Shown here in pieces: positions 5,257-6,858 of a stretch of DNA of 29,930 bases. A program made the position numbers and the translations under genes. Origin of the DNA: a virus. The DNA is taken from the IMG/VR virus record IMGVR_UViG_3300010396_000403, positions 1 through 29,930 of that record. The stretch is one strand, 5' to 3'. Under the pieces are notes generated by a model. It saw nothing but the letters and a program-made list of their open reading frames with translations, was not told the DNA's origin and did no database searches. Numbering within the stretch: the first letter of the stretch is position 1; the number at the start of each line of letters is the position of its first letter.

Positions 5257-5588
5257 AAGCCGATCGCGAACTCACGAAGGCGATGAAGTTTCAGGACCCG
5301 CGCAGCTTCATCGGCAAGCGCATCCACCCTGAGACGAATCATCAATGCGTGTACTTGAAGGGCAGGGATGTTGGGCCGGCGCGGCTAGCGATCTACGAGC
5401 GCGACAAGGAGCTGTGCAAGTTCTGCGGTCGCTTCGCAGATTGGGACGATGGCGAGATGCATCACGTAGTCGGTGGATTGGGCCTGCAACGCTGCTCATG
5501 CCCAGAGAATTTAGTGTGGTCGTGCGGCCCTTGCCATCAAAAGGAGCACGGGCGGTTCTGGCGCACGGCAAGGATCGCGGCCGCATGA
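5253..5588 (+). CDS. HNH endonuclease-like protein (111 aa)
   Basis: TTG 5253 overlaps the previous stop. An in-frame ATG at 5283, preceded by GAAGG, is an alternative start. The core is RLAIYERDKELCKFCGRF, then GEMHHVVGGLGLQRC and ENLVWSCGPCHQKEHGR. It has metal knuckles C55/C58 and C91/C94 with the HH at 70-71, as in HNH nucleases. The length is normal for a stand-alone phage HNH. It could be a homing nuclease or a functional phage nickase; the text cannot separate these. Confidence 0.8.
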   Translation: MKADRELTKAMKFQDPRSFIGKRIHPETNHQCVYLKGRDVGPARLAIYERDKELCKFCGRFADWDDGEMHHVVGGLGLQRCSCPENLVWSCGPCHQKEHGRFWRTARIAAA

Positions 5589-5761
5589 ACCTGCCCCGCG
5601 CCATCGAGCTACACCGAATTATGCAGGGCATGGCACTGGCCTTCGAGCGCGGCGAGGAAGAGGACGTGCGCGACTTCAACGCGCGATTCATGATTTTGTC
5701 AGACGAGTTCATGCGAGCTATTCAGGAGCCAGAGAAGAGCGATGCCGTGGGATCGAAGTAA
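5585..5761 (+). CDS. Small helical protein (58 aa)
   Basis: The ATG at 5585 overlaps the stop of the HNH gene (ATGA). The product is MNLPRAIELHRIMQGMALAF, then an acidic stretch (ERGEEEDVRDFNARF) and the tail SDEFMRAIQEPEKSDAVGSK. It is probably two helices, with no metal site. The tail motif D/E-EFM-x-AI-x-EPE recurs in the 20-codon gene at 6086. Its last 20 bases overlap the next HNH-type gene. The function is unknown. Confidence 0.6.
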   Translation: MNLPRAIELHRIMQGMALAFERGEEEDVRDFNARFMILSDEFMRAIQEPEKSDAVGSK

Positions 5762-6089
5762 GTACCCGAGGGACTGGGAAGAAATCGTCGCGGCTGTGCG
5801 TTTGCGTTCTGGCAATCGCTGCGAGTGTCACGGCGAGTGCGGGCTGCATAAAACAACGCCAGGACCGAGGCGGTGCGTGGAGACAAATGGTAACGACGCG
5901 CGATGGGCGAAAGGTCGTGTGGTGCTGACAACGGCTCATCTGTGCGAATGCGACCCACCTTGCGGGATTCCCGCGCACCTCAAGCACATGTGTCAGCGGT
6001 GCCATTTGCGTGTCGATGTGAAGCTGCACATGCGCCACGCCAAGGAGACGCGCGAGCGCAAAGTTGGGCAAAAGAGGCTATTCGCGTGA
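5742..6089 (+). CDS. HNH-like zinc protein, phage family with C-x2-C-H end (115 aa)
   Basis: It begins MPWDRSKYPRDWEEIVAAVR, and YPxDWxxI is a start I know from a widespread phage family. Metal-binding groups follow: C27-x-C29-x3-C33, H66 in VVLTTAHLCECDPPC, and C84-x2-C87-H88 in LKHMCQRCHLRVD. The order fits a degenerate HNH/McrA-type fold. I do not see a clear second catalytic histidine, so it may bind DNA or RNA without cutting. A duplicate-like arrangement (small helical gene, then this) precedes the methyltransferase. Confidence 0.75.
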   Translation: MPWDRSKYPRDWEEIVAAVRLRSGNRCECHGECGLHKTTPGPRRCVETNGNDARWAKGRVVLTTAHLCECDPPCGIPAHLKHMCQRCHLRVDVKLHMRHAKETRERKVGQKRLFA

Positions 6090-6148
6090 GCGAGGAATTT
6101 ATGAAGGCGATTCGCGAGCCGGAGCAGCCGCAGAAGCAATGCGACTGA
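6086..6148 (+). CDS. Mini-gene or remnant (20 aa) leading into the methyltransferase
   Basis: GTG 6086 overlaps the previous stop (GTGA) and the frame ends at TGA 6146-6148. The product is MSEEFMKAIREPEQPQKQCD. Its core repeats the tail of the protein at 5585 (EFM-AI-EPE) with mostly synonymous base differences. The methyltransferase ATG (6139) lies inside it. The embedded frame at 6152 is in the same frame, one codon after its stop. It may serve mainly to couple translation. It may instead be the remains of a longer gene. Confidence 0.4.
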   Translation: MSEEFMKAIREPEQPQKQCD

Positions 6149-6858
6149 CGCATGGGAGTTTATTCAGTGGAATCGGAGGGTTTGACCTTGGCTTCGAACG
6201 AGCGGGAATCGAGACAGTCTGGCAGGTCGAAATCGACCCTTACTGCCGGCGAGTTCTTGCACGCCATTTCCCATCTGCCATCCGCTACGACGACGTGCGA
6301 ACAGTCGGAAATCACAATCTCGCCCCCGTTGACATCATCAGCGGAGGATTCCCCTGTCAGGACATCAGCAACGCCGGAGACAGAGCAGGCATCGACGGCG
6401 AAAAATCAGGTCTTTGGCGAGAGATGTATCGAGTCTTTTGCGAGCTACGACCGCGCTACATCGCAGTGGAAAACGTCTCAGCATTGCTTATTCGGGGGTT
6501 TGAGCGAGTTCTCGGGGACTTGGCCAGCGCAGGGTATGACGCTCAATGGCGAAGCGTATGGGCTGCCAATTTCGGGGCTTTGCATCGCAGGGAACGAGTC
6601 TTCATTGTTGCCAACAATGCGCGCGAGTATGTCCCTAGTTGGGGCACCGATCTGGAAACGGACGCCAAACAGAGGGAACTTAGAGGAGATACTTGCCGAA
6701 TTGTACCCTCACCTTATTGGGCAACTACTGAATGTCCAAGCTGGGGAGTGGCTGATGGGCTTCCCGATCGGGTGGACCGCCTTAGAGGACTTGGCAACGC
6801 CATTGTCCCGCAAATCGCAGAGTGGATCGGAAGGCGAATAGTGGAGGCCGGCGCGTGA
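6139..6858 (+). CDS. dcm: DNA (cytosine-5) methyltransferase
   Basis: This 239-residue product transfers a methyl group from S-adenosylmethionine to C5 of cytosine in DNA. Motif I is LFSGIGGFDLGFERAG (8-23), motif II contains EID (31-33), and motif IV is SGGFPCQDISNAG with the catalytic Cys73. Motif VI is ENVSAL (111-116), motif VIII is HRRERVFIVA (149-158), and motif X is GLGNAIVPQIAEW (217-229). Only about 45 residues lie between motifs VIII and IX/X, so the target-recognition part is very short. I set the start at ATG 6139, four residues before the conserved THGSLFSG. It probably protects phage DNA from host restriction. The target site cannot be read from the sequence. Another long frame overlaps most of it. 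Confidence 0.93.
   Translation: MRLTHGSLFSGIGGFDLGFERAGIETVWQVEIDPYCRRVLARHFPSAIRYDDVRTVGNHNLAPVDIISGGFPCQDISNAGDRAGIDGEKSGLWREMYRVFCELRPRYIAVENVSALLIRGFERVLGDLASAGYDAQWRSVWAANFGALHRRERVFIVANNAREYVPSWGTDLETDAKQRELRGDTCRIVPSPYWATTECPSWGVADGLPDRVDRLRGLGNAIVPQIAEWIGRRIVEAGA
6152..6841 (+). CDS. Overlapping (+1 frame) protein inside the methyltransferase gene
   Basis: A 229-codon frame lies wholly within the methyltransferase gene, shifted by +1. Its product has TSSAEDSPVRTSATPE over methyltransferase motif IV, then SFASYDRATSQWKTSQHCLF, FSGTWPAQGMTLNGEAYGLP, SSLLPTMRAS, a NLEEILAELYP helix and EWLMGFPIGWTALEDL over motif X. I remember phage hypothetical proteins with the same string of motifs (TSSA-DSP-RTSA, TWP-GM-NG, SLLPT, EWLMGFP-GWT). 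That suggests a true overprinted gene rather than chance, but this recollection is unchecked. The ATG stands four bases after the stop of the 20-codon gene in the same frame, so re-initiation is plausible. There is no clear ribosome site. The function is unknown. Confidence 0.5.
   Translation: MGVYSVESEGLTLASNERESRQSGRSKSTLTAGEFLHAISHLPSATTTCEQSEITISPPLTSSAEDSPVRTSATPETEQASTAKNQVFGERCIESFASYDRATSQWKTSQHCLFGGLSEFSGTWPAQGMTLNGEAYGLPISGLCIAGNESSLLPTMRASMSLVGAPIWKRTPNRGNLEEILAELYPHLIGQLLNVQAGEWLMGFPIGWTALEDLATPLSRKSQSGSEGE

What the first reader, a model, noticed from the sequence alone, without database searches (positions are those of the whole stretch)
6139..6858. Two long conserved-looking genes in different frames on the same strand (cytosine methyltransferase and an embedded 229-codon gene)
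The +1 frame (6152-6841) is open for 690 bases inside an intact methyltransferase. It carries its own recognisable phage-protein motifs end to end: TSSAEDSPVRTSATPE opposite the PCQ motif, FSGTWPAQGMTLNGEAYGLP, SSLLPT and EWLMGFPIGWT opposite motif X. I recall hypothetical phage proteins with this same motif order, so the overlap may be old and widespread, an example of overprinting where the methyltransferase motifs dictate a second protein. The methyltransferase target-recognition part is unusually short, which would reduce conflict between frames. Translation could come from re-initiation at the ATG four bases after the TGA of a 20-codon gene in the same frame.
Basis: partly seen in the sequence, partly recalled or inferred. 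Interest (0 to 1): 0.85.

Follow-up and report, generated by a model that had tools for sequence, protein, structure and literature searches.

The report
DNA methyltransferase with nested partner subunit
A phage gene carries, in a shifted reading frame inside it, a second real gene that most likely supplies the missing DNA-recognition half of the same DNA-methylating enzyme, an arrangement also found in relatives across phages and bacteria.

Summary
In detail: a 229-codon +1 ORF (6152-6841) lies inside an intact cytosine-C5 methyltransferase ORF (6139-6858). It is not a by-product. In 69 distinct viral relatives chosen by methyltransferase similarity alone, the +1 frame has 3 stops where 139 are expected over 91 codons from the FPCQ motif; the +2 frame has 198 against 225. 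Codon-position rates hand over from one frame to the other along the gene. A motif IX pattern (EWLMGFPIGWT here) is in the nested frame in 121 of 132 loci and in the methyltransferase frame in none. The methyltransferase frame keeps motifs I-VIII and X. Best reading: a two-subunit C5-methyltransferase, alpha (catalytic) and nested beta (recognition domain plus motif IX), of the M.EcoHK31I kind. In three relatives motifs IX and X sit together in the beta frame, an M.AquI-like split. Of 80 bacterial loci found with a beta profile, 79 have alpha at the same +1 offset. A second phage clade has part of the recognition domain in the +1 frame. The kind is known; I found neither its breadth nor the second partition in print. 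Expression and biochemistry are untested.

The parts
6139..6858 (+). alpha subunit: C5-cytosine methyltransferase, 239 aa, motifs I-VIII and X, no motif IX pattern, no confidently folded small domain
   Evidence: PF00145 E 9e-43 over residues 6-163 only; PHROG 363 E 1e-75; model pLDDT 84.4, Z 26.8 to M.HhaI
6152..6841 (+). nested +1 ORF, beta subunit, up to 229 aa; true start unresolved
   Evidence: PHROG 1008 E 1e-19
6284..6838 (+). part of the +1 frame that is under selection across the family (from about 22 codons before alpha FPCQ)
   Evidence: stops observed/expected: 137/132.0 at codons -60..-26, 16/109.7 at -22..-1, 3/285.2 at 0..+90; 131 loci, partly chosen by beta; same in 69 loci chosen by alpha alone
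6349..6360 (+). alpha motif IV FPCQ (catalytic Cys); read +1 as part of SPVRTS of beta
   Evidence: sequence; invariant P72 C73
6583..6609 (+). alpha motif VIII (HRRERVFIV)
   Evidence: invariant R151, R153; motif name recalled
6631..6786 (+). alpha linker where other C5 methyltransferases have the recognition domain and motif IX; low-confidence in the model
   Evidence: residues 184-209 below pLDDT 50; codon position ratio pos3/pos1 0.90 then 0.70 in the family
6746..6778 (+). beta motif IX (EWLMGFPIGWT)
6790..6831 (+). alpha motif X (LGNAIVPQIAEWIG), its Gly-Asn 35 nt after the Gly of beta GFP
   Evidence: 35 nt in 91 of 103 loci where both could be located, of 132
6175..6180 (+). GGAGGG inside alpha motif I codons, 7 nt before an in-frame beta TTG (6188): strongest ribosome-site-like candidate start
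   Evidence: a candidate only
6086..6148 (+). 20-codon ORF (GTG start) whose stop lies just before ATG 6152
   Evidence: sequence

Best explanation
The locus encodes one two-subunit cytosine-C5 DNA methyltransferase on two overlapping frames. Alpha (frame 0) is the catalytic domain: SAM binding and catalysis, motifs I-VIII, plus motif X at its C-terminus. Beta (+1 frame, nested) is the small domain: target-recognition residues plus motif IX. The two associate after translation into a M.HhaI-like enzyme. Beta is translated on its own from an internal start. A solitary phage methyltransferase that protects phage DNA from host restriction is the likely role: no restriction enzyme was recognised among ten window proteins scanned with Pfam, five of which matched nothing; the other ORFs of the window were not scanned. 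Shown: both frames under purifying selection, the partition of motifs, a confident catalytic fold for alpha. Inferred: translation of beta, association, that beta reads the DNA target, and the biological role.
For: Selection in the +1 frame: 70 distinct viral relatives found with alpha alone have 231 stops/443.8 expected, +2 control 773/756.0; 49 of 70 at or below 1% of shuffles; position-resolved 3/139.1 from FPCQ to +90 codons in 69 of them. Jackknifed beta profile: 25 of 25 loci tested (of 89 in A3) score above all 40 synonymous shuffles. Codon-position rates: alpha pos3/pos1 3.69 before beta, 1.84 in IV-VIII, 0.90 in the recognition zone, 0.70 in the motif IX zone, 2.51 and 2.01 in motif X. 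Motif IX pattern: 121 of 132 in beta, 0 of 132 in alpha; hhalign's best beta-to-classical match lands on motif IX. L007 (Streptomyces phage Vash), L087 and L202 have motifs IX and X contiguous in the beta frame. All 86 loci taken with beta carry alpha, at offset +1. 23 C5 methyltransferases without a full beta match show no significant +1 ORF.
Against: The hhalign match to motif IX is short and not significant alone (P 0.061; alpha's motif X scores alike, 0.058). The motif IX pattern was written by me. Beta's model is poor (pLDDT 62.5, pTM 0.26) and finds no fold match; the two chains could not be modelled together. No family-wide start codon was found, and the window has no ATG where constraint begins. 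PMC3404938 places the predicted recognition domain of M.EcoHK31I in its large subunit, unlike my reading. No expression or activity data.
Confidence: 0.86

Rival explanations
1. Programmed +1 frameshifting: ribosomes reading alpha shift after motif VIII into the beta frame, making a fused chain with recognition domain and motif IX.
For: Beta's C-terminus continues the order VIII-recognition domain-IX; in L007, L087 and L202 a single shift would give a complete enzyme.
Against: Constraint on the beta frame starts about 100 codons before the end of motif VIII and synonymous sites are already damped there (pos3 0.335 against 0.487 upstream); a fused chain in the nested type would lack motif X.
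Confidence: 0.08
2. An independent phage protein (for example a regulator or anti-defence protein) overprinted on the methyltransferase, not part of the enzyme.
For: Beta gave no convincing Pfam match (107 members) and no NCBIfam match (4 members); its model is inconclusive.
Against: The motif IX pattern is in beta and missing from alpha, with a fixed IX-X geometry in 91 of 103 measurable loci; all 86 loci taken with beta (80 best of 393 IMG/VR relatives, 6 of 129 phage records) carry alpha.
Confidence: 0.05
3. Chance or composition artefact: methyltransferase motifs and codon bias keep the +1 frame open without function.
For: Half of beta's profile score is dictated by alpha; this window alone gives 13 of 2000.
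Against: with the +2 frame and methyltransferases without beta as controls.
Confidence: 0.01

Closest known systems
M.EcoHK31I (two-polypeptide C5-methyltransferase, YGGCCR)
   Same: Large subunit with motifs I-VIII and X, small subunit with motif IX (passages of PMC3404938; called naturally split in a passage of PMC3439449). That its small-subunit gene is nested in the large one in another frame is my recall of Lee, Kam and Shaw 1995, which is not held.
   Different: Here on a phage contig, no restriction enzyme recognised nearby; PMC3404938 puts the predicted recognition domain in the large subunit, here alpha's model shows none. Sequences not compared.
M.AquI (two-polypeptide C5-methyltransferase)
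   Same: Catalytic motifs on one chain, distal recognition part and motif IX on the other.
   Different: Motif X is on the small subunit in M.AquI, on alpha here; relatives L007, L087, L202 match the M.AquI layout but with a long +1 overlap.
PHROG 363 (alpha) and PHROG 1008 (beta), both labelled DNA methyltransferase
   Same: Sequence families of the two frames.
   Different: The entries as shown do not say that the two overlap.
M.HhaI / M.HaeIII (single-chain)
   Same: Alpha has the same catalytic fold, Z 26.8 (2uyc_A, a mutant of M.HhaI) and 24.6 (1dct_A).
   Different: Alpha (239 aa against 327) has no confidently folded small domain; beta supplies it (inference).

Membership tests
C5-cytosine DNA methyltransferase (PF00145), alpha | motifs I-VIII with catalytic PCQ, motif X | tested here: met
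   motif numbers recalled
C5-cytosine DNA methyltransferase (PF00145), alpha | motif IX and recognition domain on the same chain | tested here: not met
   motif IX pattern 0 of 132 in the alpha frame; low-confidence linker
M.EcoHK31I-type split methyltransferase | motifs I-VIII and X on the large, motif IX on the small polypeptide | tested here: met
   definition from passages of PMC3404938
M.EcoHK31I-type split methyltransferase | small-subunit gene nested in the large one in another frame (recalled) | tested here: met
   the definition itself is recall
M.EcoHK31I-type split methyltransferase | both polypeptides needed for methylation | not testable with these tools
   needs biochemistry
M.EcoHK31I-type split methyltransferase | sequence homology to M.EcoHK31I alpha and beta | not tested
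   I had no sequence of it; the 1995 paper is not in the library
M.AquI-type split methyltransferase | motifs IX and X together on the small polypeptide | tested here: not met
   motif X of the window is in alpha; met in L007, L087, L202

The most novel reading that the evidence does not exclude
Nested coding of a methyltransferase's recognition half on top of its catalytic half is not a single curiosity but an ancient, widespread architecture of phages and many bacterial phyla, possibly one of the most widely kept same-strand overlaps (no comparison with other overlaps was made), and it exists in at least two partitions: in one beta holds motif IX, in the other (phage clade L299-L318) the +1 frame holds the first half of the recognition domain while the main frame keeps motifs IX and X.
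Probability: 0.65. Interest if true: 0.75.

Novelty: new member of a known kind. Interest (0 to 1): 0.6.

Why it matters
Annotation keeps only one of two real genes: of 16 annotated phage records looked at (16 of 129 with a match, not a random draw), 10 list alpha alone, 5 beta alone (4 of these as hypothetical protein), and only the M.AquI-like one lists both. A codon-optimised synthetic alpha would destroy beta and probably look inactive (inference). The system is also a clean natural test of dual coding: hundreds of loci in which two halves of one enzyme constrain each other's codons, which ties overlap evolution to how DNA specificity changes.

Tried and rejected
Pfam and NCBIfam scans of the nested protein found nothing convincing (in one search each of 15 families matched 1 of 107 members, best E 0.021); a profile search of solved structures found nothing up to E 10; Foldseek on the weak beta model gave two matches, E 6 and 8. 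A universal beta start codon was sought and not found; ATG at codons -25 to -19 is common but is mostly what alpha dictates. One search scanned one strand only and is superseded. Three single-chain queries fetched 34 loci as controls; 25 could be scored, and 15 of these had a +1 ORF matched by at most 1 of 100 shuffles, all in one clade, L299-L318; the other 10 had none. I suspected beta itself in that clade; the result is mixed: beta-profile score is within the shuffles in 5 of 11 loci (8 to 14 of 60 as high) and above nearly all in 6 of 11 (0 to 2 of 60). The +1 frame there carries another piece, the first half of the recognition domain.

Rows dropped: 14 long-insert rows and 4 phage-collection rows between A1 (107) and A3 (89), 3 between A2 (61) and A4 (58); 7 control loci with in-frame stops and 2 partial ones; L250 from the classical alignment, 4 irregular loci, 10 of 114 pairs by a cap per locus and 14 of the remaining 104 without landmarks; most pairs in the codon control also lacked landmarks; 1 of 70 loci without the anchor; 29 of 132 without both patterns for the spacing. 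Seven beta-type loci turned up among the 30 fetched with the dcm family; 4 of these 7 reached 1% of shuffles, L265, L266 and L257 did not (3, 6 and 44 of 200). Of the 80 alpha-queried loci, 21 did not reach 1%.

Full report
WHAT IS THERE. The window is an IMG/VR virus record. RecT and RusA pass Pfam cut-offs; HNH, terminase and portal matches fall just below theirs, so it is a tailed-phage contig. A C5-cytosine methyltransferase ORF (alpha, 6139-6858) has a 229-codon ORF nested in its +1 frame (beta, 6152-6841). Alpha matches PF00145 over residues 6-163 only and PHROG 363 over 1-237. Beta has no Pfam or NCBIfam match but matches PHROG 1008, as do 89 of 89 aligned members.

IS IT MORE THAN CHANCE. 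For this gene alone 13 of 2000 synonymous shuffles give so long a +1 ORF. Of 80 viral loci retrieved with the alpha protein only (the best 80 of 299), 59 lie at or below 1% of shuffles in the +1 frame against 1 in the +2 frame. After removing duplicates, 70 loci have 231 stops against 443.8 expected in +1, and 773 against 756.0 in +2. By position relative to alpha FPCQ (69 of the 70 have it), +1 stops are 77/72.7 (observed/expected) at codons -60 to -26, 11/53.2 at -22 to -1, and 3/139.1 at 0 to +90; +2 gives 123/124.1, 83/81.8 and 198/225.0. A larger set of 131 loci, partly chosen by beta similarity, agrees. So the selected frame starts about 22 codons before FPCQ, and roughly the first 44 of the 229 residues need not belong to the conserved protein.

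SELECTION ON BOTH FRAMES. A beta profile built without the tested locus scores the +1 frame at 257 bits on average against 125 for shuffles; 25 of 25 loci tested (of 89) exceed all 40 shuffles (window 254.9 against a maximum of 181.5). In 90 aligned pairs (not independent) the ratio of changes at alpha position 3 to position 1 is 3.69 in motifs I-III, 1.84 in IV-VIII, 0.90 in the recognition zone, 0.70 just before motif X, then 2.51 and 2.01 in motif X. In a +1 overlap alpha position 1 is beta's wobble position, so a ratio below 1 means that beta dominates exactly where motif IX lies. Viral enzymes from the control set give 1.85-2.21 throughout, from few scorable pairs.

WHAT THE NESTED PROTEIN IS. 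Its C-terminus, LNPxWVEWLMGFPxGWTDL, resembles motif IX of single-chain enzymes, such as LTSRMMARIQGFPDTWTF, and is the place where a profile comparison with 22 of them aligns best (weak by itself). The motif IX pattern is in beta in 121 of 132 loci and in alpha in 0 of 132; beta's GFP and alpha's motif X Gly-Asn are 35 nt apart in 91 of 103 measurable loci. Alpha's model is confident for motifs I-VIII and X, with a low-confidence linker between, and aligns to M.HhaI with Z 26.8, rmsd 2.3, 200 residues of 239. Beta modelled alone is poor. Natural variants are telling: in Streptomyces phage Vash (L007), L087 and L202 the alpha frame ends after motif VIII and motifs IX and X follow each other in the beta frame. 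In L158 and L223 both frames change once between motifs VIII and IX, yet motif IX is again one frame ahead of motif X, as one indel in a nested pair would give; L216 has a frame change inside both genes. Whether these are real or sequencing errors is unknown.

HOW FAR IT REACHES. tblastn with beta finds 129 phage records. All 86 loci taken with beta (6 of those records, and the best 80 of 393 IMG/VR relatives) carry alpha, at offset +1. Of 80 bacterial and MAG loci found with a beta profile (the best 80 of 255; titles from Proteobacteria, Actinomycetota, Bacillota, Bacteroidetes, Planctomycetota, Acidobacteria, Nitrospirota, Treponema and others; some may be prophages), 79 have alpha at offset +1, and L216 mixes frames. 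A profile search rings in 15 of 299 genomes of one phylum (that of a Sphingomonas locus) and 4 of 299 of another (that of a Paenibacillus locus), each sample holding its seed genome; all 15 loci kept from these two searches carry alpha one frame behind. Among 30 loci fetched with the dcm family, the 23 without a full beta match show no significant +1 ORF.

A SECOND PARTITION. Seeking controls with a single-chain enzyme (L248), I met a phage clade (L299-L318) whose main frame keeps its own motif IX (seen in L304 and L312) yet whose +1 frame is open for about 210-230 codons. In 90 pairs of 14 loci (mean identity 84%) the pos3/pos1 ratio is 1.05 in the +1-open part after motif VIII and 3.12 after the +1 stop. 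The +1 frame there reads, in L304, [38 protein letters not shown], like the in-frame segment [40 protein letters not shown] of L248. The loci were found through the HKEKGNGF pattern, so I scored only the part before it: 11 of 11 loci exceed all 60 shuffles in +1, with no positive score in frame 0.

KNOWN OR NEW. PMC3404938 (passages read) names M.AquI and M.EcoHK31I as the exceptions consisting of two polypeptides and gives their motif layout; the window matches the M.EcoHK31I layout. PMC5944983 (passages) cites only the M.AquI papers for natural bisection. That M.EcoHK31I's small subunit is nested in another frame is recall. Searches of the open-licence library listed no paper whose title or abstract start reports this distribution; some lists were capped (20 of 530, 12 of 29), only listings were seen apart from the passages named here and those of PMC3439449, PMC6456624 and PMC4574080, and subscription papers are mostly missing. 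The locus is therefore a new member of a known kind, with a breadth and a second partition that I did not find described.

LIMITS. No translation, start site, complex or activity was tested. The window's own beta start is open: ATG 6152, TTG 6188 with GGAGGG 7 nt upstream, or a weak codon nearer 6284.

Noticed in passing
L299-L318 (IMG/VR phage clade): A different C5-methyltransferase clade in which the +1 frame holds the first half of the recognition domain while the main frame keeps motif IX: a second nested partition.
   Followed up: partly
L092, L100, L107, L115 beta ORFs: Beta proteins with several tandem WPTP-type modules in the recognition zone, read in alpha as repeated ADA-like motifs; these may be exchangeable specificity units.
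   Followed up: no
L202:2080-3900: An HNH-endonuclease-like segment (by eye, untested) interrupts the alpha gene between motif I and the PC motif, with a frame change after it.
   Followed up: no
window 5345-5761 and 6086-6148: The 20-codon ORF before alpha (SEEFMKAIREPEQ) resembles the C-terminal end of the upstream ORF (SDEFMRAIQEPEK): a short duplicated gene end.
   Followed up: no
PP395640.1, PP083311.1, KX853510.1, NC_028910.1, PP079418.1 (L002, L003, L006, L333, L335): Public phage records that annotate only the beta frame and miss the catalytic methyltransferase.
   Followed up: partly
L158, L223 and L216: Nested pairs with one frame change (after motif VIII in L158 and L223, inside both genes in L216); motif IX stays one frame ahead of motif X in L158 and L223. 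Real or sequencing errors unknown.
   Followed up: partly
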